DNA of 23,565 nucleotides from Jaapia argillacea MUCL 33604 (Eukaryota; Basidiomycota; Agaricomycetes; Jaapiales; Jaapiaceae): contig KL197730.1 in the NCBI GenBank assembly GCA_000697665.1, positions 622,713 through 646,277 on the forward strand, written 5' to 3'. Position numbers and translations under genes: made by a program. The first letter of the stretch is position 1. Each line of letters begins with the position of its first letter. This document shows, one piece after another, positions 1-23,200 of this stretch. Below the pieces are notes generated by a model. The model saw only the letters and a list, made by a program, of their open reading frames with translations, did no database searches and was not told where the DNA came from.

Positions 1-1574
1 CGCTTGCGCCTTCTAAGTCCCTATTGCAATAATTCTCGTTGAAATACACAGGGGAATGAATATCTTGGAAGCATCACAAGTGTACTGAAATGTCTGTAAG
101 CTGGCTGTGACAATATTGAAAATTAAAATAAATTCATATCGAATGACAGATCTAATTGATAGTAAACTACCGCAGACGGTGCTCCTCAGCCCATCCATCT
201 CCCCGAACCTCGCCAGGCTGCACATAGTGTTGAGAAGCTTCAAAACAGATACCAGATTAGTCAAGGCACAGCCATGGTACAGGCGGAGACTCACCGAAAG
301 CATCGAGAACTAGTTCTGACGAAGTGAAGGAGGCTACCTCCCCCTGAACCCTCAAATAGAACAACTGGTGGCACTTACATGTAGGTAGACGATGTAGCGG
401 CACGGGTGGCCCCATGTCGGGTCAAAAGTAGGAGCTGCGTGGAGGTTGTAGAGGTTGCGGGGGAGACCAGGACTGTAAGCAAAAGCCAGAAGCATTGGCA
501 TGCGTGAAAGGAAAGGAGTGAGAATGCAGAGACGAGGAATTGGAAGGACAGTAAGATTCACTACGTACCATCCAACAGAAGGCCACCGTCACGGTCTCTA
601 CTTATTGCATCTCAAATGGCAGCTGAGATGATGACACTGGGAGCAATCACATTGCCACCCATCTCCCCCTGTTAACTGACGAAAATCACTTGCCAACTCC
701 ACACATCGCCTCCAGGCTCGCATCCCCTGGCTACGCCGTCGAAGCTCAATACCCCTCAGACTCCATATCTCTCCCTCATCCCCCTCCATCACAAAATCGG
801 CGGGGAAATTGTATGAGCTGTTGGACCTTATAAGGAAACTGTGACTTTGTAAGCACTGGCAAGAGTCCAACAAACCTGCCAGACATCTTGAATCCGCTAT
901 CAATCATGCCCCTGGCTTTTAAATGCCTTGGATCTGCTTCCAATCTTGCCTCAGACTTGTTGTCATTTCCAACCTCTTACATGACCAAGCCCAGCCTGAT
1001 GTCAGTGTTGTTGCCTCTTACAACCTCACCATCTGGCTTGTGCACCGTCCCCATCCAACTGCGACAGCTTGTGCCAACTGCCAACCTTGTCACCCGACTG
1101 TGATTTGGAGATAGACAGGGTCTAGGATCGCTCCTCTGTCCCTCTCTCTTTCGCTCCTCCAACCTCCCAAGGATAAGCTCTGCCTTGGGTCCACCTTCTT
1201 GTTCGAGATGTATCACAATCTGGCTGCTCTGTGAGTGTTCCCTTCTCTTGCCTCGAGTTTCTCCGAGGAGCAGTGGGAGTCGGTTGGCACAATATCGGAG
1301 TGAGCGGGAAGAGGGAAGGAGAACATCGCTATCGCAGCAATCTCCTCCCTGCCTCTTCCTCTTCACAGCTTTGTGTCTTCTCACTTTTCATCAGTACCCC
1401 AATTTTCGACCATATTTTGGTTTGTCGTTGCTATCGGTGCTGGGCAATTGTCCTCACTCTTGTGCGCCTCCCACGTTCCCTGAGTCGGGATTGACTAACA
1501 AGCTTGACGTGACCCTGAGTGTGAACCCTTGTCCGTTATTACTGTCCATTGCTACGGGGGTTTGTGTAGATACA
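1..1574. other. left flank, no secure gene
   Basis: Low-complexity, pyrimidine-rich stretch, especially 600-1500 on the plus strand. Open frames on both strands (for example 598-903 minus, 977-1384 minus, 1185-1634 plus) overlap one another, have biased composition and show no domain I recognise. The plus frame at 1185-1634 runs into the LTR that starts at 1580, so its end is artificial. Nothing else is supported except a candidate exon listed separately. Confidence 0.5.
379..472 (-). CDS. candidate internal exon of an unidentified gene
   Basis: On the minus strand a 94-nt segment lies between a TTACAG acceptor and a GTAAGT donor. In the frame that stays open it gives about 31 residues rich in Pro, His and Tyr (starting PGLPRNLYNLH), which looks more like protein than the surrounding frames. 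Possible continuation exons near 190-310 are weak. No family is recognised. This could be a fragment of a host gene or chance splice signals. Confidence 0.22.
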
Positions 1575-1579
1575 TCTTC

Positions 1580-2255
1580 TGTTAAGATCGTTACTTCAAT
1601 GAAGTATACGATGAAAGACTTGATACTTCTCTGATGATACCTAGGCTACAGCTGCAGAGTAGAATGACGAGAGGATGAGAGACTATCAGAGATTTCCAGA
1701 CAGATGATCAGACAGGGACCAAGTTGGAACGATGTGAATTGAGATAACGATCTATATTGACAAAGTGAACAAGATGGGGAATACTAGCGAATACAGGGAG
1801 GTATATATACTAGGATGAAGCACAGTCTGTAGTCCGTAGTAGCGATGAGTAAGACAGTAGTAAGCTTGAGTCGAAGTGAGTCAGAAGGATAGGAGTCCGT
1901 AGTTAGGGGTCCGTAGTCCATAGTCCACAGTCAATGGTCTGATCTGTGAGTCAGAGACATAGGGGTCTGTAGTTGATGGTCCAGGTCATACTGGAAGGTG
2001 AGGTGACGAGGTGACAATGGATCAGAGTGATGATGATGGAGGATAATGCACTAGAGGTCGTATGTGCAGGAGTGAGGATCTATCGGAGGGATGTTGAAGG
2101 GATCTGTACCCGTCCCTTGTGTTCAGGAGGAATACGATCGAGGAATACGATCATGGTGCTTGATGATCCCATATATGGAAGGATCAGATATCCACGAGGA
2201 GTGTTGAATAACAAAGAAAAATGAAAATAGGCGTAGCGAGGTGTGATTCTTAACA
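1580..2255. mobile_element. solo LTR, copy 1 (676 bp)
   Basis: The element starts TGTTAAGA and ends TCTTAACA, a perfect 8-bp terminal inverted repeat of the usual TG...CA form. It is flanked on both sides by the direct repeat TCTTC (1575-1579 and 2256-2260), a 5-bp target-site duplication. A second, very similar copy lies at 20859-21522. There is no internal retrotransposon domain on either side, so this is a solo LTR left by LTR-LTR recombination. Inside are short repeated GTCCGTAGTC-like words (about 1830-1930) and a TATATATACTAG stretch near 1803 that may be the promoter. Frames inside it are not genes. Copia or Gypsy origin cannot be decided from the LTR alone. Confidence 0.93.
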
Positions 2256-3628
2256 TCTTCGTTGTACATAGTGGGCCACGAAATATAACAATTTTACAAA
2301 AAATTTCGTCCGTGGTGCACGCCATAGCTGAACCCAAATCTAATCTGATGAAGCTATCACCCTGGAAGCAGGTGTGAGAATATATGGCCTGATAATGGGT
2401 GGTCAGACTTGCGTCTCCTCACAAGATATCGAGAAGGCTTGGAGACCTTGAGTTATCCCCAAGGCCGACATAGAACTACTTCTGCTTGCAAGAAGGACCA
2501 CAAGAGTTCTAAATATTCCTGGTAATCTGGACCTTATAAGGGCTTTATATCCGCTTGCAAGAGTTGCACTGATTTTGTGATGTCCATATCGATATCCCCT
2601 TCCTCTGACCATCCTTCACCCCATACCAATCTTTTTCTCTCCTCACACACCTTCATAGTTTTCTCTTGTTTTGAATTCTTTGTAATCTCTAGACACATGA
2701 ATACATGTTCTTTTTGCCTCCGTTGTCTCTGGACTCCTCGCCTGCTTAGCGTTCTCAACGTTGCTTTGATTTTTCGGCAATCCGAGATATCACAACTTAT
2801 CCAGTAACCAAATGCGCAAATAACTCAAAAATCCATAATCATGTAACTACAGTAACTAACTATTGTCGACAAGAATTGCAACAGCCACATCCCTGTTGGG
2901 ATGACCTTCCAAATTTGGGTAGGTATGAGACCTCTCCATACCTCTCCATACCTATCAGTGCCAATTGCTGGTATGGAGGTATGGGAGAGGTATAACTCGG
3001 CTAACTGTTTCCTGATTTACACACATAAAGTACAGTCTGTTGACGAGCACAAGACAAACAATCAGAATACATCATTTGAACATAATATACCATTTATAGC
3101 AAGATCAGATTTGGCGCGCTTAATTGCTTCTCTTATCTGCATTTAGCTTCTATGATGTAATAGAAGCACGTACATAATATTGACTAAAAGCTTAATTCTT
3201 CCGTCTGGATCAATGACGTTTCACATTAGGTTTAACTAACCTTTTAAGGTATGATTACTACTTATGGTTAATCCCATCAAACTCAAATATGCGCAAATCA
3301 TTTCATTTGTTTATCCATTTGTCGTCTTGCCAGTTTCCTTCCTTTCTTCACCCAACACCTTTCCCCCAGATCGTTCAACTTTCTCTGCTTTGTATTCACT
3401 CGCTTTCTCAATGCCTTCAACAGTGCAGCTATTCGATATCACTTAATTCCTCGTGCTGTAATGGCTCCTCAGCTACACACGCTCCTTCAACGCAACAAGT
3501 TCTATTGCGTCTACCATTTAGTGTGTACTTTGGAGTGCAGTGTGCGACTTTAGACTTATAAAGTGGTGAGTACTGACTTATGTTATTTAATCTTCTCTTT
3601 TTTCTTTTTGTCGTTGTGGATCTGTGCC
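2256..3628. other. intergenic stretch without a recognised gene
   Basis: After the LTR's target duplication this is AT-rich and CT-rich sequence. It holds one strong hairpin (2930-2991, listed separately). A 31-codon frame that starts at the ATG near 3461 follows a CT-rich leader typical of fungal promoters. That small frame (starting MAPQLHTLLQ) ends at about 3556 and matches nothing I know. I see no other gene. Confidence 0.5.
2930..2991. repeat. hairpin of ACCTCTCCATACC repeats
   Basis: The left arm (2930-2952) contains two tandem CCTCTCCATA units. The right arm (2970-2991) is its near-complete reverse complement, one unit slightly shortened. The 17-nt loop is centred on CCAATTG. It may be a small foldback, or the fused ends of a transposon with terminal repeats of this kind. 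No target duplication is evident. Confidence 0.6.
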
Positions 3629-4680
3629 CATCCCGAACCCTCTCGCGAGATCATTCAACAAGGCGTGGGGTCACTTTTAAAAAGTCGACCTCATTTGGTA
3701 GGCGAGCAGGCACCGCGTCATTGATCATAATCGACGCGGCAGCAGACCCTCAAGGGACTGTCGATGTCACACACTCGCTTTTAATGGCGCACAATCAACC
3801 CTTCTTTTCATCAACATCTCCAATTCTGCCCATCCTGTAACTTCCTGCAAGATCATTCGCCAAGGGGGTGGGGTCACTTTTAAAAAGTCGACCTCGTTCA
3901 GTGACCAAGCAGGCACTGTGTCATTGATCAGAATCGACGCGGCAGCAGACCTTCAAGGAACTGTCGATGCCATAAGCTCGGTTTTAGTGGCGCAGTATTG
4001 TAGAAATACTACATCTCCTTTATCAACTCTATTTTCTTTTGTCCATCTATACTGCCCATCCCATAACACCCTGTGAGATCATTCGCCAAGGGGGTGGGGT
4101 CACTTTTAAAAAGTTGACCCTGTTTGGTGACCAAGCAGGCACCGCATCATTGATCAGAATTGACGTGGTGGCAGACCTTCAAGGAACTGTCAATGCCATA
4201 AGCTCGGTTTTAGTGGCGTAGTATTATAGAACAAATCTTTCTTGTATCAACTCTATTTTCCTTTGTCCATATCTCAATTCTGCCCATCCCGTAACGCCCT
4301 GCAAGATCATTCGCCACACTTTTAAAAAGTCGACCTTATTCGGTGACCAAGCAGGCACTGCATCATTGATCAGAATCAACACGGCGGCAGACCTTCAAGG
4401 AACTGTCAATGCCAGAAGCTTGGTTTTAGTGGTGTGGTATTATATAACAAACTTTTTTCGTTCAACTGTATTTTCCTTTGTCCATATCTCAATACTGCCC
4501 ATCCTGTAACGCCCTGCGAGATCATTTGCCAAGGGGGTGGGGTCACTTTTAAAAAGTCGACCTCATTCGGTGACCAAGTTGGCACCGCGTCATTGATCAG
4601 AATCAATGTGGCGGCAGACCTTTAAGGAACTGTCGATGCCTTAAATTTGGTTTTAGTGGTGCAGTATTGTAGAAATACTA
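3629..4680. repeat. five diverged tandem copies of a ~170-bp unit
   Basis: Cores can be aligned on the word TCACTTTTAAAAAGT at 3671, 3874, 4100, 4316 (first bases altered) and 4543, giving a period of 203-227 bp. Each unit runs from GCGAGATCATTCG through that core, then GCAGGCACCGCGTCATTGAT, CAGACCTTCAAGG and TTTTAGTGGCG. Linkers are AT-rich and also related, with TTTTCYTTTGTCCAT before each unit. Copy 4 has lost about 13 bases before the core. Open frames on both strands recur at the same place in several copies but do not join into one protein. On the minus strand each unit ends in GGTTCGGGATGG or a relative, resembling a Pol III B box, so a SINE-like origin is possible. Confidence 0.82.
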
Positions 4681-5308
4681 CTGTGCCTTGCTGCCTACTT
4701 GGCCAGTCTGGCTACTCAGTCAATCGCATTTTGTGCCACATGCAGCCTGAGATTCTTAGATCTCTTGGTAGGGGCATATAGTACATCTACGAGGCCTATG
4801 CCTCCCAAAATTCCAGGCAAATTGGTCTGCAGTTCATGGAGTTAAATTGAATCTAAGCGTGACTGGCGTGGTTTCGGCCAGAATCACTAATTTCGGCCTC
4901 CATCCATCTTCACCCACCTATCCAAGAGCAACCACCCTTTAACACTCAGATTTTCTTTGGTATACTACCCTCATAAGCATTGAGGATCACACTTCAAACA
5001 TAAGATATACCAAATGTATAAATTATAGAGGGCTAGGTGCCATTTGGCTGAGCAGGGGGTCATTCTTCATTTTCCCACCCTCTGGAAAGAATTGACCACT
5101 GTACAACAAATACCTGGGCTACGGAGACAGTCTAGGGGGGAATTTATAGCCAAGATAGATTACTTCGAGGTAATCCAAGTTTGAGAGGCAACGGGCCAGT
5201 GGTTTGAATGGTAGACAGACAAAACCTCAGAGTGGCCGAGTAGCCGACAGGGCACAATACATCTTTTTTAGCAGCTGTATTTTCTTTTGTTCATCTATCA
5301 ATACTGCC
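4681..5308. other. spacer inside the repeat cluster
   Basis: About 630 bp separate repeat copies 5 and 6. No frame of interest was found. A short stretch at 5231-5245 (TGGCCGAGTAGCCG) resembles a tRNA-like A box, but no matching B box lies at the expected distance, so no tRNA or SINE is called. Confidence 0.4.
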
Positions 5309-5690
5309 CATCCTGTAATGCCTTGCGAGATCATTCGACAAGGGGCGAGGTCACTTTTAGAAAGTTTACCTCATTCGGTAAGCGACCAGGCACCACGTCA
5401 TGGATCAGAATCGATGTGGCGACTGACCCTCAAGGGACAGTCGGTGCTGTAGTATATATTGATTTATTTCATTAATTGGATTTACTTTTTGTTGACATGC
5501 TACTCTCACCATCTCGAACCCCCTTGCGAGATCGTCCGACAAAGGGACGGGGTCACTTTTAAAAAGTCGACCGACCTCATTCAGAGAGCGTGCAGGCAAC
5601 GCATCATTGATCAGAAGCGACGCAGCGGCTAACCCTCGAGGGATAGTCCATGCCAAAAGCTTGCTTTTAGTGAAGTCTTGTCAGGACCAA
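5309..5690. repeat. two further copies of the same ~170-bp unit
   Basis: Copies 6 and 7 have cores at 5351 and 5553, 202 bp apart. They are more diverged from copies 2-5 and closer to copy 1 in details such as CCCTCAAGGGACAGTC. Copy 7 has a duplicated GACC after the core. The cluster ends in a TATATATATAATTTATA tract at 5693-5709. Confidence 0.78.
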
Positions 5691-6025
5691 ATTATATATA
5701 TAATTTATAATCTTCACTTCTTTCATCCGTTGCTCTAATGGGAAAAGTCTTAATGGTTCCCAATATTGAGGAATACTTATCAAGGGGAAGGTACATGTAG
5801 CCGTGCAAAGATCATAGATAAATTTCATTTAATCCTCAATATAAGTTATTTTCAGTGAATATCCAACTTAAGAGAAAGTCGATGGTCCAAAACCACCACC
5901 AATTACAGGAAGTATCACACGCACACATACAATGTACACAAACTACAGCAGATACAAATGCAGACAAAAAATGTGGATGTCAATGAAGAGGAATGGCATG
6001 AGAGAACATCGACCCGAACAGCACT

Positions 6026-8179
6026 CTAGTCCTCCGATTCGGTCATTAGATCAATGAAAAGATCATCAATCAATGAATCGGGTGGAAGAGAGGGAGTTGA
6101 TTCCTCAACCTTGTTCCTTTTGGCCTTACTGTTACTCTGCATACAATTCGCCTTTCTCTTCTGAGATTCCAACCTCTGCCTTTCGTGATTTTTCTCCGCC
6201 TGTTGCTCCCCAGTCATCCATGTCATGACCATCACTGGTTGTGGATATGGAACCCAATATATATGCTGCAAAGAGTGGATAGTTGCTGGGGCAATCCAAT
6301 CAGGTCGTGGGAACCAATCAGTGGATAGACCACAAAGATCACAATGCCATTGGAAAAGAAAACCTTGCTTGGTTTTCTTCATCTTGGATTGCACATGAAG
6401 TTGGATAGATTGACAAGCCAAACTGGGGCAAGTAGGAGCAATGAGACCGAATGGACACCAGTAATGGTCAGACTGAACCAAACTCATCGTCTTCATGAAT
6501 TGTCCTCCAGTCGCAGAATCTGTGAACATCGTTGTCACAGAAATGGGGGAGTGACTGAGAGCTTGAATGTCTGCACTGAAAGCTACCTCGATGGCAGTGA
6601 GAATGGAATAGTTGTAGGTGACGGTTAAGGAAATAGCTTTGGTTAAATTGAGGGCGACGTTGTTCGGGACGATGGAACCTCTGCAGAAAGCCATGATGAA
6701 AGTGAAGTAGTCCCTAGTAGAATTCAAAGTAAATAATAAGATATGAATGATAAATAAGAAAGTGAAAAGAAGAATGACTTACTTGGCCACGAGCGCCTCA
6801 ATTCGCCTACGAGAGTTCGCGACGGACATCAGAGGACCACAAGTGAGGAAAAACATGCCCTTTCTCGCTTGTCTAATGGTAGGAAGCGAGTTGAACAAGA
6901 TCGGACTGAGATAGGCTTCAAGCAACTGAATCGACATAAATTAGCAATTCCATTCACAATCTTCAAAATTAAATGAAACACACATCAACGACATTTCCAG
7001 ACTCATATCCCTTAGACGCCAAACCTCCATATATGAGGTTGCCAGTTGAAGTCTCGGCATGCGAGTCCCAGAGTATGTATATGTCGGCCTGGTGATCCTT
7101 CATAAACTGCCTCGCTTCTACAGTGCCATTGTCTGCCTGATGAGACTTAGTCATAAGAATGAAGTCCTTCCAGAACAGCTGAAGGATGGCCAAATTAGAA
7201 GATCCATATACATAATAATGTGAATGAAACCAACGTACATAAGAAAGTTTATGCCGATATTCTTCAGCAATCACAACATTGGCCAATAACCTCAGAATCG
7301 AACCTCGAATGCCTTGAGTATATGTTAAAATAACGGTCAGTTTCAAGGACTTTCCAAGTACATATCGTTCGTACTCCGACCGTAAAATCTCATACTAAAG
7401 GACACTAAAATTGATATATACTGGTCAGTCGAATGAAAGGAAACAAATCCATGCATAAAAAGGTCAACGACTCACATTAGGGAAAGTAGAGTTATTAAGG
7501 TGACACAAGGGACACCGAAACATCTTTCTATCAAATTCATCCCGGATGTTGCTGTGCAGAAGCAAACACCCAGAAGAAATGGAGCTCGTTGCAATACAAA
7601 GACAGACGTGACAAATGTAACAGTCCACTATATTGCCCACATCACCACAGGCAGCACAATTCTACATATAAAAAATAAAAACAGAAGCTCAGAAATCATC
7701 AGAAAGGCATGTGTACGTTGACACGCACCAAATGAGCTTTGTTGCTCTGCCAAAGTTAATCAATCGATTGTAAAGGTAATCAAACGATGAGAAAAAACAA
7801 ACGCACCATCTTACTCTTAGCAATTGTCGGCTTGTGCAAATATTCCAAATAACTCTTTATACGTTGTTCAACTAATAAAGAAGATTTAAAGTTAAAAAAA
7901 TCGGATCAAATGCGTGCACTGTACTAACTCAATCCTATCTCTCTATCTTCATTATCCACCAAAAGCTTATCGTCATCTTCCTGAGCCACTGCAGCAGCAG
8001 ACAAATCGATTTCATTGGATTGCAAAGTAGGGGGGTTGTCTAGAGAAAATTGTGACGACATTCAATGGTAAATCCAAATAAAACAGATACTAAACAGCGA
8101 TCTCACGTACCTCGAACGTTCAAAGGACATTCTCGAGCCACAACAGAATGAGCATTTGTTGACGGTTTCCTGTTCCCAG
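6026..8179 (-). CDS. PHD-like finger, caspase/CHAT-like core and zinc ribbon protein
   Basis: Nine exons join in frame with no stop: 8179-8111, 8039-7929, 7871-7807, 7746-7729 (18 nt), 7661-7476, 7394-7239, 7178-6984, 6925-6783 and 6713-6026, ending TAG. The first exon is not found, so ~542 residues are a minimum. Residues 88-149 form a Cys/His cluster like a PHD or RING finger (CAAC, CYICHVC, CPLC). Residues 150-310 look alpha/beta: a hydrophobic strand, then WDSH (His ~241), then FFLTCGP (Cys ~295). The 54-residue spacing and the surrounding strands recall the His/Cys dyad of caspase/CHAT proteases; this is inference. Residues 400-441 carry a likely zinc ribbon, followed by a basic, nuclear-signal-like stretch (~485-520) and an acidic end. 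I recall unnamed proteins of this layout in many Agaricomycetes but know no function. It diverges from the gene at 8376. Confidence 0.75.
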
Positions 8180-8375
8180 CTATACAACCACCTCGATCAG
8201 ATCTTGTTCAGCTCATAGTGATGGTGGATGATATCAAGCAACAAAAGCATTAACATTTACACAGCCACCAAAGGTAAGAATCTGTACATGTAAATACAAA
8301 CAAATACAAACAAACAAATCAACCTTCCTGGCATCCAATGCATGATGTGTACCATTACTTCAACACTACAGCAAG
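8180..8375. promoter_or_regulatory. shared upstream region of a divergent gene pair
   Basis: About 200 bp separate the first traced exon of the leftward zinc-finger gene from the ATG of the rightward gene. The leftward gene's own start must lie here: candidate minus-strand ATGs are near 8341-8347, but none could be joined in phase with certainty. The stretch has short TTTGTATTTG repeats and an AT-rich middle. No clear TATA box stands out. If both starts are here, the two genes share a compact bidirectional promoter. Confidence 0.45.
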
Positions 8376-10774
8376 ATGCCTCAGCGATCCAAAAAGCTTC
8401 AAGTAATGGGGCCTGATTTCCCAAAAGATTCTAAGTTGATTCAGATCAGAACTGATGCTTGAGACCTATTTTATGCAGATGTGCATAATGCCACTGATGA
8501 TGGGCTCGTTCCTGTCAGACAGACGAGCATTCATAAAGTGATCCCTAATCTCGAGCTCAATGAGTCGACGCTAGTATCAAACTTGTTTATACCAGCCAGT
8601 TACGCGGAACACTACCGATTCGTCAATCAACTCCGACTTTGCTCCTATGTGTGGTCGGTTCTAGGAGAAAACTACATGTCGGACAGGATGAACTACTGGC
8701 GAAACACAAGCATGTATCTTCTGCGGATCGTTCGCCATTTCAATCACTCAGCGACATTGGAGGATGTGAAGAGCGATTGGAGATGTCCTGTCTTTGACCA
8801 ATTCTTGATCTGAGAATTTCATGGCCTTCTGCACACTGCAATCGATCTAAACAAGGTGATGAAGGATAGGCAAGTGAACATCAATGTTGATTGCATGGAT
8901 CTGGGTAAGCTCTCCTTATACAAATCATGATGTCCCATCTATTACCATATGACTCTTTCACTAGATTGGGAGGACTTTGCAAAACAGTATCCTATAGATT
9001 TTGGAGCAGATGACAAGGGAAACCCGATTCTGTTTTGGACAGAGGGAAGAGTAGACGTCATCCTCAAGCAGATCAAAAACGAGTTTGAACTCATGAAGAA
9101 GGAAGATAAGGCAACGGAAACGATCCGTAAAAAATCAGCCAAGGAATATGATGACGACTACTCACCTTGCCCTAAACCAAAGAAAGGACAAAAGAAACGT
9201 ACCAGGAATTCCATATACGCAGACCTATTGTTAAAGCCACGAGAAAGAAAGGTAATGTCACCTAACATTTTGAAAATGGTTCGTATGTTCATCATGCTTT
9301 TAAACAATACAGCTGTCAAAAAATCCACACCTGTACACAATACTTCTAGCGAAGAAGAAGATATAGTAGTTGAATTGAGTGGTGAGTGACAAAATATTCA
9401 TTTCCACATTCGTACATTATGTTGAAATGACATATTGAATTTCATTGCAGAAACTGAGAAATCCACCAAGAAAAGTCGCATCCACTCCCCAGTCCAGGAG
9501 CAGAAAGCCGCTGTCAAACCCAAAGTTCAATGTAACTGCTTGATCTCTGTGGATGTGACAAATATTGATCAATATTAATAATCCCTAGATCACGTTGAGT
9601 CAGACCAAGATGATCTGGAGCGTATTGACGGTTTTCCTCGAAAATTTGTATCCTCCAGTCTTCCTGCAGGTTATATTGGCAACAAAGTATTCCATTCGTT
9701 TATTCCACCTACAATTCAAATACTCCCACCATCCAGTAAAGTCGAGACTCAAGAAGTGGAGTCAATTCTCCACAATGATCCTCTTCCTGCCGGTGCGTGA
9801 CCAAAAATTATATGTCATCATACAATTGACTAGTAAAAAAATAGTGGATACATCAACCAATTCAATAGAGTTGACTCCCAGCAGTCATTCTCAAGAAGAT
9901 GACAATGATAACGCCATGGATCAAGATCCATCCGTCAATTTATTTAACGGCAGCAGAGGTGACTCCGAGCTGTTGAAAGCTTTCTTTAACTCCACTGTCG
10001 ATCCAGATATCGATCCAGATTTTGATCCGGATGTTGTAGGGGAGGAAGACTGGCCTGAGGAAGATCATAATGAAGCGAAGCAAATACGTGAGTAACTCCA
10101 TTAAAATTACAACCAACGACTCATGCAGAATCACATCAGTGTTCAAGACTGAAATGGCAAGTGCCTTAAACAGATTGAACTCTCACAAACCAGATGAGGA
10201 TGATATCGATGGTAAGATAAGCTATGTATTCTTATCAGACCTTTAACAAACCCGTTATATATTCAGATGATAATGGAGGTACAACACATACACTTTATGG
10301 TACAGGAAACACATACTCATGACTTAAAGGGAGTTCCAATGACGGTGCACACTCTTCTCACATCACAAATGATTCCCGTGTTTTGAATGAGGATGAGAGT
10401 GAGTAATTTGGACTGGAATGTAAAGATATTCAAAATTTATTGCATGCAAATTTCTGAATATCAGGCGACTACACATGTTGGTGCAATTGGCATTGTGATA
10501 GCTCTGGAACTGCAACAAGCTCAAGTCACCCAATAGATCAAATGATCGATAACAATCAATCAACCAGTACTGGTAGTACCAGTTTGCACAACATGACCAG
10601 CTTATATAATTTCGTTCCAACAGGTGAGAAAGTACTTGATATGGGAACATTAAATTAACCAATGATTACATAGATTCAACACTTCGCCCTGTTACATTGC
10701 CTGACACATTGTTCTCGGAACCATTCAAAAAACAAAAGAGAAGGGGAAGGGGTGGCAAACCACTAGTTGCATAA
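8376..10774 (+). pseudogene. nine-exon gene of unknown function with three in-frame TGA codons
   Basis: Exons 8376-8904, 8965-9381, 9451-9531, 9589-~9796, 9834-10087, 10140-10211, 10267-10398, 10465-10623 and 10674-10774 join in frame (about 650 codons, ending TAA). All introns have GT...AG ends and are 37-69 nt. TGA interrupts at 8460, 8811 and 10320. In each case CGA would restore Arg and the frame goes on with normal-looking protein. The N-terminal ~220 residues look globular (Tyr- and Trp-rich, YRFVNQLRLCSYVWSVLGENY). Then come a Lys-rich linker, a long acidic low-complexity region with a DPDIDPDFDPD repeat near 10000-10030, and a basic tail (KKQKRRGRGG) like a nuclear signal. I do not recognise the family. 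The donor of exon 4 is uncertain: the better GTGCGT at 9793 gives the wrong phase. It is either a recently dead gene or one that reads TGA. Confidence 0.65.
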
Positions 10775-11485
10775 AATGGAGTCTATGTTCTTTATTTCAA
10801 TCAAACATTCTTTTTTTTCTGATCATACAGTCAAAGTCATTTTGCGGTTAAATGGTTATGATTAAACAAATCTTGTATTCTTTACATATCGATCACAATT
10901 CACCATCGTCAATGTTTGTATATTTCACGTTATATTCACTCGATCACACATTCTATGTATACCTAGACATTATATTTATATTATTGTCAAATGTGAAGTT
11001 TGCTCACGTCCAGTATCAAGACAGGATTAAATATGGTATTTGATTGCTCACAAGCTCGCAATAAAATCCCAGGTTATTCCTTGTCTTGATTCAGGAAGTG
11101 AACAAATTTCACATTTGACGATAGTATATATATATAATGTCTGTCAATGTGAATATAGATATAATGCCAATCAATAGTTGTATCAACAAACACTGAAGAC
11201 TAATGACCATAATGACCATAGAGACTACTGAATGTATAGCTAACCTTTCAAACAACCTATCACTCTACTGTTGTACATATTGTAAACCAACCTGTCCTGG
11301 AAATGACATCCATGCATTCAACATATGATTCACGGATTACCACAATCACAGTTCATATACCAAGTTGCAGCTGCACATGCATGTATTCCACACATTGTAG
11401 TTTTTTTTTTAACATTGCCAAACACAATGAGAAGGACTGAATATACGAGTTTCATTCAATTCAACAAACAATTGGTATCAGAATC
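10775..11485. other. intergenic, holds one copy of the F-box downstream segment
   Basis: About 10965-11325 is a diverged direct copy of 13767-14085, the stretch lying beyond the 3' end of the second F-box gene. At 11275-11325 the minus strand still encodes FPGQVGLQYV, the same C-terminal peptide as that second gene. A fragment of F-box 3' coding sequence therefore survives here, past the apparent stop of the first F-box gene. The rest is AT-rich with no frame of note. Confidence 0.6.
10986..11119. repeat. foldback element, copy 1 (~134 bp)
   Basis: Long imperfect terminal inverted repeats: the left arm 10986-11025 begins GTCAAATGTGAAGTTTG, and the right arm 11079-11119 is its reverse complement with few mismatches. 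The ~53-bp loop includes GCTCACAAGCTCGC. It is AT-flanked, with a TATATATATATAA tract just after. The form is that of a MITE or foldback. No convincing target duplication was seen. Confidence 0.75.
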
Positions 11486-13232
11486 TTACTCCAAGTCTAC
11501 ATGAATCCTCTGACCACCGCAAATCAATAAATACTCGTCAATAACAAATCTTCCTAATGTGGGCATCTCTTTGTGATAAACATCATGAATCTTGGCAACA
11601 CCCATTCCATACATGTTGCTGTTATTGCTACCCAAAACAACCAAACTCTCCAGTAAGGGAAGCTGCGTCAGATGCAGAAGTGCTGCCATAATCCACTCCT
11701 AGAGTCTATTCAATTTAGAATGTCCATTTACCTCACGAGTAATTGTCGCATTGCCAAAACGTGGCCGCAAGATTTCCAGTGAATGTAATCGAGGGAATGT
11801 AGCAACAACAAGTACTACATCGCCCAGGAATCTTGGACAATTTACTCCATGATCAAATGAAGTATATGCAAAATGCACAAGTTCTTGAGCCGTGGTGGTA
11901 GGTATATCGGAGAATGCAATTTGAGTGTCGTAAGGGGGATGAAATGGAAGACAGACATCATAATCATCAAATCGGCCCTTGGGAGATAAACTGGAGGGTA
12001 TCGAAATTGCATTGACTCCTGGTGATACACAAATTGTTGCAAGGAGTTGGGTGGGGGCTGTCAGATGCTTCAGATAGATGAGGACAGGAAATGAGGGCAT
12101 GCTGAGTGTGTAAACGGGAGATTTGCCTATGGAAAGAGTGTGAATCCAAGGACATGATTCAAGTATGCTGATGAAGCTTGTGAAATTGACAATTTCTGTG
12201 ACTTCGAGTTTCTTCAGCTGCAGTATTACCCCTGTAATACCACTCAAATAACCTTCCACAAGTCTCCATGGAATCACTAGCTTTGTGATTGACAGCTCCT
12301 GCAGATATGTCCAAGGTACAAGTGGAAGATATCGACCAAAATCAACGGAATCCTTGTCAAGTTGCACCTCAGGATCTTCGTTGCTTGGATAAGTAGAACC
12401 AATGCGAAAGCTACGAAGACTTTGAGGAAAGTCTGTCAATTGACAGTTTGTCGGGATGTGTCCAAATGCAACACAATGCATGGTGTCTGATGAACTGTAT
12501 AAAGATAGAAAAATGTTAAATTCTCAAGCAATATAATTTCTGTTCTATGAAAGCATTTGACACTCACCATCCCATCCAAAAGGTAACCCAGATTTCCAAC
12601 TGTCAAAGACATTGAAATGATGATAATCCCTTCAATAACCTCTAAATTGTTTTTGGGGGGATATCGATTAATAGGAGGGTTTCCAGCTTTCCCATTCGAT
12701 CAAACCAGGGTAGTACCTGCTGATCAAGACAACTGGTTTTGAAACCCCACCCAATCAATGCCAGGCACCTACATTCTTCCACCTTATAACCCATCAACCT
12801 CTTCTGCATCAACTTTTTGTCACCATCTCGGAGAGGATAACTAGGTATTCCCCCAAATTCCCACACAAGAAACTTGTATGATAAAGGTAAGACCATATTG
12901 CAGAAGGCCTTATTGACCCACAGCAACAACTGGATCGCAGGAAGCACAATTAGAGTGTTTGGAGAATGATCTATATCTCCATCCACTGCTAAATTGAAAC
13001 TATCCTGCACTGTGTAGGTCACAATATCAAGCCATATTTCATTGGGAGCCCCTGACCAACACATCAACTCAATGGAAAACGTAAAACAGAATTATGACTT
13101 ACATTTGAAATAAGAAATTGTTTCATGTGCATCTGAAATATCGCAACGGAACTCCTCGTGAGAAGGTAAGTGACTTTCATAGGGTATTGCATTTGAAGAT
13201 GGCACAAATCATAGAGCGTATCTCATAGTCAT
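11486..13232 (-). pseudogene. F-box/LRR protein, frame broken
   Basis: Exons traced: 13232-13103, 13051-12568, 12486-11732 and 11698-11486 (TAA). The N-terminus (MTMRYAL, then SHEEFRCDISDAHE) leads into an F-box-like start (APNEIWLDIV, then LLLWVNKAFCNMVLPLSYKFLV). Leucine-rich segments follow (LQELSITKLVIPW, LKKLEVTEIVNF, LHSLEILRPRF). Such proteins are substrate receptors of SCF ubiquitin ligases. Defects: TGA at 13211-13209; a one-base excess in the C6A5 run at about 12650-12660, after which the natural frame (DYHHFNVFDSWKSGLPFGW) is out of step; and TGA at 12634-12632. The last intron is only 33 nt with an in-frame TAG, so it may not be an intron. The coding sequence may once have reached 11275, where a matching C-terminal peptide survives. 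A 5'-truncated relative lies upstream. Confidence 0.75.
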
Positions 13233-18757: not shown

Positions 18758-20518
18758 GAATTGAGGAAATCTGCTGGGAGTCCAACTAGGCCCCATGCAC
18801 TTGAGCCTTCATTAAATAGATCTCCATCTGAGCCTAATGATGAGGCACTTGCCAGACACTTATTTCATGATGAAATTGAAGCTGCAGGAGATGATTTTGA
18901 TGATCCATTTATGTCATCAGCCCATAGGCTGACTCATGACAACCCTGCATCAGATGATATCTATGGCCCTCCTGAAGAAGAATTAGAGGAGGCTTCACAT
19001 TCTCAAATTGATAGACTATTTAATGATAGAACACAGGAGGGCTATCCTTCTCAGGAGAATAGAGATCATCAGGGTCTACCTTCTCCCCAGTATAATGAAC
19101 CTTCTCAACAACAGGATTTACCTTCTCCATCTGAGCATAGACACCCTTGAAGCCCACCAATGCCTCCTCCTGCAAGAATATCAGGGGGGGCTCGTTATCA
19201 ACTATCTAGAGCACGAAATATGACTACCATACGAGAAGATGATGCACATCCTGGACAATGAAAATGTCTTAAATGTAGACATTGGGTTCCTTTGGCTCTG
19301 TTTCAGAGGGAAAATGCCAGTTGCACCCCCTGTCTCACAATCCAGCATCAGAGAAGACAAGCTGCTGCTGCTGTTGTTGTACCAGATATACATTCTGAAA
19401 GCCAAAATGAAGGGCCTACCAATGAGAGTCAAGAACACCCAAATATAAATGATGCTACTAATGGAGCACAAGGCCAGCCAGCAGCAGCTGTGATTGATCC
19501 TTTGCAAATGCCTGCAATTACAGAGTTACAAAAACAGCAGTTAGCTTCCTTTCATGAAAAGGCAATGAAGATTGAGATGGAGTCATGTGATGGCTGCAAT
19601 GAAGAATGGTTTGATCTTGGGGTATCTGAGAAAGGAGGAAATCAGTTGTGTAAAAATTGTCATTCAAATAATAAATTTCAGGCCTCAAATAATATGGATC
19701 CTGGACCTCGATGTCCTGATCTTCCAAAGCTAACTCAGATGGAAGAGATTCTCATTTCTCCTATTCATGCATTTCTACAAGTCTGGCAAATTTGTAGTGG
19801 ACAGTATAAATATGCAGGGCATTGCGTCAATTTTGCCAGGGAGAACTATACCTTGAATCAAAAGGTTCCTGCTTTACTTGACAATTGTGATATTATGATT
19901 GTTCATTGGGCAGGAACTGCACCTGATGGAGAAACCCAGCTTTTTGAAGATTTCCATGTGTGTAGAGCTGTTGTAGATACTTGGCTGACATATCCTCTTC
20001 ATAACCACCCAACATTCATATCAAGGCAATGCCAAATTGATGCAGAAGCATTAGCATCCTTACCTGAGAATGGATTGGTGAATGATCAACTCTGAACATT
20101 GACAACTCAAGAAGATGTGACACTGAGTGAAGATAATCTTGGCCCTCCTGAAGCTGAAGCAAATAATGGTCAACCAGACAACTCTGAGAATAATGGGCAG
20201 CCTTCTGGAGTAAATCAGGAACAGGTCCATGCTGCTTTGCACTCAAATGGCTTTGTTCCAAACCTACATACACAAGCAACTGAACTTGACCAACTTCAAG
20301 CAGCTGCACAAGCCATTGATGGACCTGTGCTTACTCTAGCAAATCCTGTCCTTAATTTTCCTGAAGTTCGTGGAACTCCTATCAATGAATATTCAGGCAG
20401 ACACATTGCAATTGATGCATTTCCCTCTCTTTTTCCAACTGAAAAAGCTGACTTTCATGAGACACGCCCACAGAAGGTATCTGAGTCTGATTACACTAAA
20501 CATTTGATGTGGTACAAA
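18758..20518 (+). mobile_element. Helitron Rep N-terminal part, interrupted
   Basis: One frame runs from about 18758 to 20518, broken only by TGA at 19148, 19259 and 20093. Order: an acidic, Pro/Ser-rich region (which might instead belong to the Copia piece); a Cys cluster at 19262-19345 (KCLKC...CTPC); a second Cys cluster (CDGCNEEWFDL...LCKNC) of the type found before Helitron Rep; a conserved block (ISPIHAFLQVWQICSGQYKYAGHCVNF); and the start of the Helitron-like replicase domain (PINEYSGRHI, AFPSLFPTEKADF, HLMWYK). The known next motif, DGRFARHPRFR-like, is absent, because the hAT end begins exactly after MWYK. The rolling-circle His and Tyr motifs and the helicase are missing. Each TGA fits a former CGA. 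Confidence 0.85.
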
Positions 20519-20711: not shown

Positions 20712-23200
20712 TCAGCCCCCCCCAAAAGCATCATTGAGCTCCTCTTCTGCATCACTATCCAAATCAAGGTGAATAAAATCAAACTTATCAGGAGATCCTT
20801 GGATATCTCCACTTGCATCCTCCACCTCCTGCTCGTCCTGTTGCACAGACTCCTCTTCTGTTAAGATCGTTACTTCAACGAAGTATATGATGAAAGACTT
20901 GATACTTCTTCTGATGTTACCTAGGCTACAGCCACAGAGTAGAACAATGAGAGGATGAGAGACTATCAGAGGTTTCCAGACAGATGATCAGACAGGGATC
21001 AAGTTGGAACAATGCGAATAAAGATAACGATCTATATTGACAAAGTGAACAAGATGGGGAATACTAGCGAATACAGGGAGGTATATATACTAGGATGAAG
21101 CACAGTCCATAGCCCGTAGTAGCGATGAGTAAGACAGTAGTAAGCGTGAGTCGAAGTGAGTCAGAAGGATAGGAGTCCGTAGTTAGGGGTCTGTAGTCTG
21201 TAGTCCACAGTCAATGGTCTGATCTGTGAGTCAGAGACATAGGGGTCCATAGTTGATGGTCCGGGTCGTACTGGAAGGTGAGGTGATGAGGTGACGATGG
21301 ATCAGAGTGACGATAGATGGAGGATAATGCATTAGAGGTTGTATGTGCAGAAATGAGGATGTATCGGAGGGATGCTGAAGGGATATGTACCCGTCCCTTG
21401 TGTTCAGGAGGAATATAATCGTGATACTTGATGATCCCATATATGGAAGGATCAGATATCCGTGAGGAGTGTCGAATAACAAAAAGAATGAAAATAGGCG
21501 TAGCACGGTGTGATTCTTAACATCTTCAGTAGTGGATGATGGCCCTATATTGTAGAAGAAAAGATTGTTACGGAAGGCGCACTTCAAAGCTTGAAGGGCT
21601 TTGATGATGTCCCCTTTAAGACGGTTACAGCCCTTCGTGATTGCAATGCTGGCACTTGAGAACGCTCGTTCACTAGAGATGGATGTTGCCATGATGGTGA
21701 GGTAGTCCCATGCAAGGGATGCCCACATTGGAAACCGATGTGCATTGAGCTTTCGAAAGGGTGAGAAGGTTGTAAAGCAGGTATAAAGAGAGGAGAAGAA
21801 CATACCCCCCACCACTTGACAGTTGACATACCATCTGGAGTGTCTTCGTCAAGGTTGAGATACTTGTTATACTCTTGCTCCCAAGCTTCTTCCATGTTTG
21901 TTGTTGTATGGGTACAGGCTGTTGTTAATGGGGTACCGATGTCGTCATCGTCACTGTCTGATAAGTCTGCGAGGGCTGCTGAGTAACAGCGTTTGTTTGC
22001 TTTCTTGACAGTGGCGGCAACATTTAGGCCAACTTGCTTGGCATTGACCTCTTGATATCGCTTTCTGAACTAATGGAAATTCAGTATTGCCATCAACAAG
22101 AGGAAACAAAGACTTACAACATCCTTTGCAAGTCATTGGACTTGCTTGCATAACATTGGTGTCCATTCATTCTCGAAGTGAGCCATGTGTTTTGATGGCT
22201 CAAGTAATGCAAATGATCGTAATGGGGTGACTTGCTCTGAGTGGTGATGATGGCTTACGTTGCGAGGTTGACGATATGTGCAAGGCATCTATGTCAATGT
22301 TATAAGCATCTGAATATTTCTGAATAATTACGAAGCTCACCCAATCTGGTGCTTACTCCTGTCGTAATCAACTTTCTGGCCTCTCCTGACCTGTTTGGAA
22401 ACTCTTGCATCATTGTTGTGTTTGGGCTGGCGTTGTCTGATGTTACCATGAAGATCTATAAGACAGCATTAACCCTAACCCTTATGAAATGACAGAAATG
22501 ACTTACCTTGTGGGCCACTCCAATACGATCCACAACCTTGTAGAGGGCTTGGCCAAGCCGCTTACCGTTGTGCGAACGGTTCATCTGCACAAAGCCAACA
22601 ATGGCACCTTCAAGAACCCATTTGTTTTGCGATTTCTCCTTGATCCAGTGTGCAGTGACTGCAAAGTAACCATCGACATTACTTGCTTGCCAGGCATCAC
22701 ATGTGAGTGATATTAATCCTCGAATGGAAGGGCCCTAAACATTACCATCCATTAAGTGTTTGTTTACTCCAAAGGATGTGCGAGAACTTACATTGAGTTT
22801 TTCCTTCATCTTAACAAGATATTCATAGCATAAATCTAGTATTTCTGGTTGCATAGCCTTGCGATTTGGTATTTTGACCCTGTTCTTGGCTCATGAAGCA
22901 ATGTAGATCATCTTTGCAAATGATGGGTGTTTGAGAGCACTGATGGGCTGAGAGAGAGGGTTGAATCATAGCTAGGATACTTTGAGAGGCTCACTGACCT
23001 GGTCTGTCTCAACAAGCCACTGGATCGCAGCTGACTTGAATGAGTCATCAGAGTATGAGATGATATGCTCCTGGGGGTCCTCGGCTCGAAGATGACTGTT
23101 GAGAGTAGCTTGACTTTTGCCTAAATCAGCCTTTGCCTTTCGAGCTTCGACATCTTCCCTTAGCATCGAGGTGAAGTTGTTTTTAGTACACCAAGATGAG
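20712..23200 (-). pseudogene. hAT transposase gene, broken by TGA and an LTR insertion
   Basis: Exons: about 23200-22999 (KNNFTSMLREDVEARKAK, LVETDQ); 22947-22792 (RVKIPNRKAMQPEIL); 22734-22507 (SLTCDAWQASNVDGYFAVTAHWI, with the first catalytic Asp of the DDE triad); 22455 to about 22409 (TSDNASPNTTMMQEF, second Asp); 22288-22259 (CLAHIVNLAT); about 22077-21807 (an acidic stretch, then WWG); and from 21776 (FPMWASLAWDYLTIMATSISSERAFS, the hAT dimerisation region). The acidic C-terminal tail continues at 20853-20712 beyond the LTR, in frame once the LTR and one TCTTC copy are discounted. Defects: TGA at 22893-22891 (former Arg); the expected ~200 residues between CLAHIVNLAT and the C-terminal region, including the third catalytic residue, are mostly missing or unrecognisable; and the LTR insertion. 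It cannot make a working transposase. N-terminal BED finger not seen. Confidence 0.85.
20859..21522. mobile_element. solo LTR, copy 2 (664 bp), inside the hAT gene
   Basis: Same TGTTAAGA...TCTTAACA ends and about 90% or better identity by eye to the LTR at 1580-2255, in the same orientation. The main length differences are a few small indels, including loss of a duplicated ACGATCGAGGAAT-like word near 21420. It is flanked by TCTTC on both sides (20854-20858, 21523-21527). It splits the C-terminal coding sequence of the hAT transposase; minus-strand frames running from the hAT gene into it are not real extensions. Confidence 0.93.

What the first reader, a model, noticed from the sequence alone, without database searches (positions are those of the whole stretch)
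6026..8179. Intact-looking gene joining a PHD-like finger, a possible caspase/CHAT-type core and a zinc ribbon
Nine exons hand-traced in frame give about 542 residues with a Cys/His finger, then a WDSH...FFLTCGP pair 54 residues apart with strand-like hydrophobic runs before each, then a Cys4 ribbon and a basic tail. The His/Cys spacing and context recall the dyad of caspase/CHAT proteases; the zinc modules and basic tail suggest a nuclear, chromatin-linked protein. Such a combination could be a protease-like regulator or an immune/programmed-death factor, and I know no description of one. The fold call is inference.
Basis: partly seen in the sequence, partly recalled or inferred. Interest (0 to 1): 0.75.

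Follow-up and report, generated by a model that had tools for sequence, protein, structure and literature searches.

The report
Orphan zinc-finger gene in paired unit
A gene, apparently fungal, with two zinc-binding modules around a conserved histidine-cysteine core turns out to be one half of a repeated, mostly decaying back-to-back gene pair that matched no family in the libraries searched; the caspase-like reading is possible but unproven.

Summary
The exon chain is real: on the minus strand the frame is open from exon 2 to the stop at 6026, with a Cys-rich finger, the His/Cys pair 54 residues apart, a Cys4 ribbon and a basic stretch. 'Intact' is not established: a first exon whose splice sites are shared by five copies has an in-frame stop at codon 3, though a codon-position test does not show that exon to be coding. 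The gene (A) has relatives on nine other contigs of its genome. In 8 of 8 copies that keep their 5' exons it lies head-to-head with a second orphan gene, B. A evolved under purifying selection (omega 0.14-0.19 between subfamilies) and its copies now decay, half of the window-C12 differences lying at CpG. Its most conserved stretches are around Cys280 and just after His226; the element order of a poor model resembles the caspase/haemoglobinase core without its first strand. Against: no accepted match in Pfam, NCBIfam, PADLOC, PDB sequences, Foldseek or own CHAT profiles, and the glycine after the histidine is absent in 9 of 9 copies. Verdict: an orphan gene pair, perhaps a selfish unit; protease function undecided.

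The parts
8111..8216 (-). Gene A, shared first exon; ATG at 8216, in-frame TGA at 8210; may be untranslated
   Evidence: alignment of five copies, splice-aware search and codon-position count
7929..8039 (-). Gene A exon 2 (an ATG at 8061 lies in intron 1, in frame)
7807..7871 (-). Gene A exon 3
7729..7746 (-). Gene A exon 4 (18 bases)
7476..7661 (-). Gene A exon 5: Cys-rich PHD-like finger (C74 C77 C86 C89 C104 C122 C125 H126 invariant where covered)
7239..7394 (-). Gene A exon 6: start of the core
6984..7178 (-). Gene A exon 7 with the His226 motif (His codon 7061-7059)
6783..6925 (-). Gene A exon 8 with the Cys280 motif FFLTC (Cys codon 6841-6839)
6026..6713 (-). Gene A exon 9: end of core, Cys4 ribbon (about 6430-6332), basic then acidic tail, stop
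8217..8375 (.). 5' region between the head-to-head genes A and B
8376..8904 (+). Gene B first exon; in-frame TGA at 8460 and 8811 in this copy
8965..10740 (+). Gene B further exons (second exon from 8965; similarity to the C1 copy in the same order continues to about 10.7 kb); exon borders not worked out

Best explanation
The locus is one copy of a dispersed two-gene unit. Gene A (minus strand) and gene B (plus strand) begin 159-314 bp apart, back to back, and so are probably expressed together (inferred). Shown: the pairing, the copy number, past purifying selection on A, and decay of the copies with many CpG-type differences. Inferred: the unit spreads as a selfish or mobile element or a conflict-type gene pair and has been silenced by cytosine methylation. 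Protein A is inferred to be a nuclear protein with an alpha/beta core whose His and Cys end neighbouring strands, as in the caspase/haemoglobinase fold, held between a PHD-like finger and a Cys4 ribbon. The mechanism I think most likely is that the core is, or derives from, an enzyme of cysteine-peptidase type and that A and B act on or with each other; B is the natural first substrate or partner to test.
For: B stands head-to-head with A in 8 of 8 copies that keep A's finger exon, down to 20-31% identity of B's first exon in C23, C14 and C11. Omega of A is 0.14-0.19 between the window and C45, C49 and C1 and 0.18 for C14-C11, and 0.30-0.39 among C45, C49 and C1. Of 226 differences between window and C12, 202 are transitions and 115 lie at a CpG. 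Over residues 71-488 the best conserved 11-residue windows are KGMFFLTCGPL (273-283) with its overlaps, then ETSTGNLIYGG (228-238). Element order in the model: helix, strand, helix, strand ending at His, hairpin, helix, strand ending at Cys, helix, strand, helix, helix, to be compared with caspases, whose His and Cys follow strands 3 and 4 (PMC4357240, passages read).
Against: No transposase was recognised, and no convincing terminal inverted repeat in the six stretches searched; the unit's ends are not fixed. Downstream of B, C1 matches window 11320-12577 at 90.7% in the same order, as a segmental duplication would. B occurs at two further places, one without A in the 4.7 kb upstream that were read. 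The model has low confidence and lacks the first caspase strand. No profile similarity to CHAT and no match over a cut-off in Pfam, NCBIfam or PADLOC. The residue after His is A, T, S or L in 9 of 9 copies. The codon-position count does not show exon 1 to be coding. No expression data.
Confidence: 0.4

Rival explanations
1. A is a DNA- or chromatin-binding protein of a transposable element or of its remnant; the conserved His and Cys are structural or bind metal, and there is no protease.
For: Two zinc modules and a basic stretch; further invariant His and Cys in the core (H199, C309, H353); no Gly after His in 9 of 9; copies dispersed and decayed with many CpG-type differences; the window also holds hAT and DUF6570 fragments.
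Against: The best conserved windows lie at the Cys motif and just after the His rather than at the zinc modules; element order resembles most of the caspase core; no transposase recognised.
Confidence: 0.35
2. A is a true clan CD (CHAT- or caspase-family) peptidase, a divergent relative of the many CHAT proteins of this genome, acting with B as protease and substrate, like the gasdermin-protease gene pairs of fungi.
For: Dyad order, spacing 54, element order; 50 CHAT stretches over the cut-off in the genome; fungal gasdermin genes cluster with protease genes (PMC10197012, passages read).
Against: Comparison with 12 own CHAT stretches finds nothing (hhalign probability 0.5% over 4 columns); Gly after His absent; B has no Pfam match over a cut-off (best E 0.022), so nothing marks it as a gasdermin.
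Confidence: 0.15
3. A and B are ordinary host genes of a multigene family spread by segmental duplication, with no mobility of their own.
For: The window-C12 similarity spans about 9 kb (window 2583-11829, in pieces at 92-94%), far beyond the unit; C1 matches beyond B in the same order (window 11320-12577, 90.7%); on four of ten contigs (C22, C12, C45, C14) the copy lies within about 20 kb of a contig end.
Against: Against C45 and C49 collinear DNA covers the unit itself (about 6.3-9.1 kb and, in C49, 9.4-9.8 kb), while pieces further out match elsewhere or in scrambled order; each copy found here is truncated, split or has a stop or frameshift, unless exon 1 of the window is untranslated.
Confidence: 0.3

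Closest known systems
CHAT peptidases (Pfam PF12770), abundant in the same genome
   Same: His then Cys after hydrophobic runs, and by eye a Gly-containing stretch between them (sequences)
   Different: no Gly directly after His, no profile similarity, zinc modules beside the core
Fungal gasdermin-protease two-gene clusters (PMC10197012, PMC12881547; passages read)
   Same: two linked genes, one a candidate caspase-like protein
   Different: B has no Pfam match over a cut-off; nothing shows cleavage or cell death
KDZ and TET/JBP-carrying DNA transposons of fungi (PMC12730594: start of abstract in the listing, and a term search)
   Same: dispersed units in a fungal genome; Cys-rich modules (recalled for KDZ)
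   Different: no transposase recognised in the unit; the terms caspase, protease, PHD, zinc finger, tandem repeat and CHAT do not occur in that paper's main text

Membership tests
[quoted passage not shown]
   His conserved 9 of 9, Cys 8 of 9; strands E105-112 and E179-184 end at them, but pLDDT 40
Clan CD / caspase-haemoglobinase fold | Gly adjacent to the catalytic His (PMC4357240, passage read) | tested here: not met
   residue after His is A, T, S or L in 9 of 9 copies
Clan CD / caspase-haemoglobinase fold | four-stranded parallel core 2-1-3-4 with three helices | tested here: inconclusive
   order of the later elements fits, first strand not shown, sheet not established; Foldseek on this model finds nothing
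CHAT (PF12770) / Peptidase_C14 (PF00656) | match to the Pfam profile | tested here: not met
   0 Pfam families at E <= 10 for the 527-residue protein; of six relatives' cores only two unrelated weak hits, E 0.14 and 0.16
CHAT (PF12770) | profile-profile similarity to CHAT domains | tested here: not met
   12 of the 50 CHAT stretches listed: hhalign 0.5% over 4 columns; profile alignment does not pair the dyads. Small profiles, so distant kinship is not excluded
PHD finger | C4HC3 ligand pattern with canonical spacing (recalled) | tested here: inconclusive
   C-x2-C-x8-C-x2-C-x4-C-x9-C-x17-C-x2-C: His replaced by Cys and one spacing long; Pfam PHD_pln only at E 0.22, 2.4 and 4.3; the best finger hit is zf-HIT, E 0.009, below its cut-off, in C23
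Transposable element | transposase, terminal repeats, target-site duplication | tested here: inconclusive
   no transposase domain in A or in the parts of B scanned; no convincing terminal inverted repeats; ends of the unit not fixed, so target sites not testable
Transposable element | dispersed and multi-copy | tested here: met
   A-like sequence on 10 contigs
Proteolytic activity | cleaves a substrate, needs His and Cys | not testable with these tools
   bench work

The most novel reading that the evidence does not exclude
An undescribed selfish or conflict-type two-gene element of this (presumably agaricomycete) lineage that encodes a zinc-tethered, caspase-fold protein with a non-canonical dyad (His not followed by Gly), together with a dedicated partner protein transcribed from the same divergent promoter.
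Probability: 0.2. Interest if true: 0.8.

Novelty: new variant of a known kind. Interest (0 to 1): 0.45.

Why it matters
If the core is a caspase-like enzyme, this would be a zinc-finger peptidase candidate borne by a repeated, decaying gene pair, and would tie a caspase-fold protein to genome conflict rather than to cell death. Even without catalysis, a conserved pair of orphan proteins spread through a genome is a lead to an undescribed element, and the pairing gives a direct test: A against B.

Tried and rejected
Family libraries gave no match over a cut-off for A or for the parts of B scanned: Pfam, NCBIfam for A (12), PADLOC for A and the C11 B (89). The best sub-threshold hits were PF21644 for B (E 0.022), zf-HIT for the C23 finger (E 0.009) and PRK06921 for A (E 0.07). 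PDB sequences gave only E 0.97 and 0.67 for A (11, 33). Scans for relatives in viral contigs and GTDB genome contigs (36) found none. Fungal genomes other than the window's own were not at hand, so conservation outside this genome is untested. CHAT kinship by hhalign and by a home-made profile alignment: unsupported. AlphaFold2 of A's core read through introns and of B's first exon (69, 77) had low confidence (pLDDT 40 and 52), so the Foldseek lists (62, 81) are not used. Terminal inverted repeats: none convincing in the six stretches searched. Tandem arrays beside A were first taken as part of the unit: the C11-type repeat lies at four places, three of them beside A copies, but the window-type repeat lies on ten contigs, beside A only on two, so arrays are not counted as part. 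Literature: searches found no paper, 71 one, 46 two, 59 fourteen (ten listed), 83 twenty-six (fifteen listed); among those listed I saw no such protein or pair, judged by titles, starts of abstracts and the passages named in the report. These are word searches of open-licence papers only. Codon 164 reads TGA in 5 of 8 covering copies, CGA in two and TGT in one; I take it as a recurrent CpG hot spot, not recoding.

Full report
1. The gene. The feature lies on the minus strand. Joining pieces by GT-AG junctions gives an open frame of 527 codons from an ATG at 8061 to the stop at 6026; a splice-aware alignment returns the same pieces. The two other frames of the chain hold 29 and 37 stops and none of 20,000 mononucleotide shuffles is open, so the chain is not chance. 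The five copies share an ATG at 8216. In the window and C12 a stop follows at codon 3; in C45, C49 and C1 one follows a few codons later. If exon 1 is coding, the window copy is damaged at its start. Against that, differences in exon 1 between the window and C45, C49 and C1 fall 34, 34 and 34 on the three codon positions, and within its last part, over all pairs of the four, 3, 14 and 6, which is not the pattern of a constrained coding exon; exon 1 may be untranslated. The first in-frame Met after splicing is then Met66.

2. Copies. The own genome (43.7 Mb, 95 contigs, G000) holds A-like sequence on 10 contigs including the window's: C12 at 94-95% DNA identity, C45, C49, C1 and C54 at 73-75%, C23, C14 and C11 at 40-47% protein identity of the core, and a fragment on C27. 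Most intron positions that can be compared are shared. Of nine copies scored, seven have an in-frame stop from exon 2 on; 9 of the 10 stops placed are at positions where the window has Arg, and at least three more stops, in C23, C14 and C11, appear as insertions and were not placed. C45, C49, C1 and C54 also have frameshifts. C12 is split by an insert of about 8.8 kb whose two ends both match one stretch of C11 in the same orientation, with a 9-base overlap at the break, as an LTR element would leave (inference).

3. The partner. DNA similarity between the window and C45, C49 and C1 runs from A through the upstream region into a gene on the other strand. This gene B starts at 8376 in the window. 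It is head-to-head with A in 8 of 8 copies that keep A's finger exon: window, C12, C45, C49, C1, C23, C14, C11. C54 and C27, which lack A's 5' part, show no B in the stretches fetched. A search with the window's B gives 7 places, all beside A; with the C11 B it gives 10, of which C13 has no A in the 4.7 kb upstream that were read and C70 cannot be judged because the upstream stretch is withheld. In the window B's first exon has stops at 8460 and 8811. In C11 and C14 it is open from its ATG; in C45 and C49 it is open over the aligned 174 codons, with a stop just before. B has no Pfam match over a cut-off (best E 0.022) and, tested with the C11 copy, no PADLOC match.

4. Selection and decay. Nei-Gojobori estimates for A give omega 0.17, 0.14 and 0.19 between the window and C45, C49 and C1 (dS about 0.7-0.8) and 0.18 for C14-C11 (dS 1.3, near saturation), but 0.30-0.39 among C45, C49 and C1, and 0.41 for window-C12. 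Between window and C12, of 226 differences 202 are transitions and 115 lie at a CpG. So A was kept as a protein for a long time and its copies now decay as methylated repeats do; methylation itself is inferred.

5. The core of A. Across three lineages (window with C45, C23, C14 with C11) the best conserved 11-residue windows over residues 71-488 are those around Cys280 (273-283, mean identity 0.80 against 0.44 overall), then 228-238, just after His226 (0.76), then 308-318 (0.72). His226 is kept in 9 of 9 covering copies, Cys280 in 8 of 9, the exception being the frameshifted fragment C54. Its elements are helix 31-45, strand 73-83, helix 89-101, strand 105-112 ending at the His, hairpin 117-125, helix 151-168, strand 179-184 ending at the Cys, helix 195-223, strand 231-236, helices 241-260 and 264-280. 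The expected first strand before helix 31-45 is not shown, and part of helix 195-223 is intron-encoded. The rest follows the order described for caspases, with the dyad after strands 3 and 4 (PMC4357240, passages read). The dyad spacing of 54 compares with 42 in caspase-7, 46 in PmC11 and 49 in MARTX-CPD, from residue numbers in those passages.

6. Evidence against a clan CD peptidase. [quoted passage not shown] here the residue is Ala, Thr, Ser or Leu in 9 of 9 copies. There is no Pfam hit at E <= 10 for A, only two unrelated weak ones among six relatives, and no PDB sequence match better than E 0.67. The genome has 50 listed CHAT stretches and 9 Peptidase_C14 stretches, yet hhalign of A against 12 of the CHAT stretches gives 0.5% and a direct profile alignment does not pair the dyads. 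Both profiles are small (effective number about 2), so distant kinship is not excluded. Foldseek on the poor model lists only noise. Membership is not claimed; 'works like' remains open.

7. Zinc modules. C74, C77, C86, C89, C104, C122, C125 and H126 are invariant where covered, with C94 nearly so; they form a PHD-like pattern with a Cys at the usual His place and one long spacing (canonical pattern recalled). Pfam gives only sub-threshold finger hits, the best zf-HIT at E 0.009 in C23. The C-terminal ribbon has Cys pairs at 394/399 and 423/426; in C11 and C14 a low-complexity linker separates it from the core.

8. Mobility. No transposase domain and no convincing terminal inverted repeat were found, and the ends of the unit are not fixed. 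The window-C12 similarity spans about 9 kb, and C1 matches the window beyond B in the same order at 90.7% although A and B themselves are only about 70% alike there: either a younger repeat inserted near both, or duplication of larger segments. Mobility is therefore a reading, not a result.

9. Conclusion. Shown: a repeated head-to-head pair of orphan genes with a conserved His/Cys core in A. Inferred: a selfish or mobile two-gene unit and an enzyme-like core. Papers: PMC10197012, PMC12881547 and PMC4357240, passages read; PMC12730594, start of abstract in a listing and a term search without hits. No description of such a protein was seen in the listings.

Noticed in passing
window 3875-4674, with further partial units to about 5.7 kb: Tandem array of 216-bp units 3' of gene A. 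Related repeats lie away from any A copy on C18, C24, C23, C58, C64, C1, C30 and C28. C11, C14 and C27 have a different 236-239-bp array on the same side of A.
   Followed up: partly
gene A codon 164: TGA in C12, C45, C49, C1 and C14, CGA in window and C11, TGT in C23, though C14 is only about 40% identical to the window: a stop recurring at one site.
   Followed up: partly
window 19262-20095 (+) and 21231-21848 (-): DUF6570 (Helitron-associated by recall) and hAT dimerisation domain fragments towards the contig end.
   Followed up: no
G000, whole genome: 50 listed CHAT stretches over the cut-off, several in local runs (C34, C4, C9, C18, C81): a strong expansion.
   Followed up: no
L060 1254-1820 (-) and L061 about 1251-1685 (-): B-like genes on C13 and C70; C13 has no A in the 4.7 kb upstream that were read, C70's upstream is withheld.
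   Followed up: partly
window 10965-11142: A 61-base inverted repeat at 85% just beyond B, with similar sequence in C12 and C49; possibly a small foldback element.
   Followed up: no
L038 4493 to L039 4316 (C12): Copy of A split by an insert of about 8.8 kb whose ends both match one C11 stretch, with a 9-base overlap at window 7256-7264; LTR-element-like.
   Followed up: partly
window 11320-12577 and L042 8626-9900: Stretch beyond B that C1 shares at 90.7% in the same order, though A and B there are only about 70% alike; no Pfam match for the long ORF inside it.
   Followed up: no
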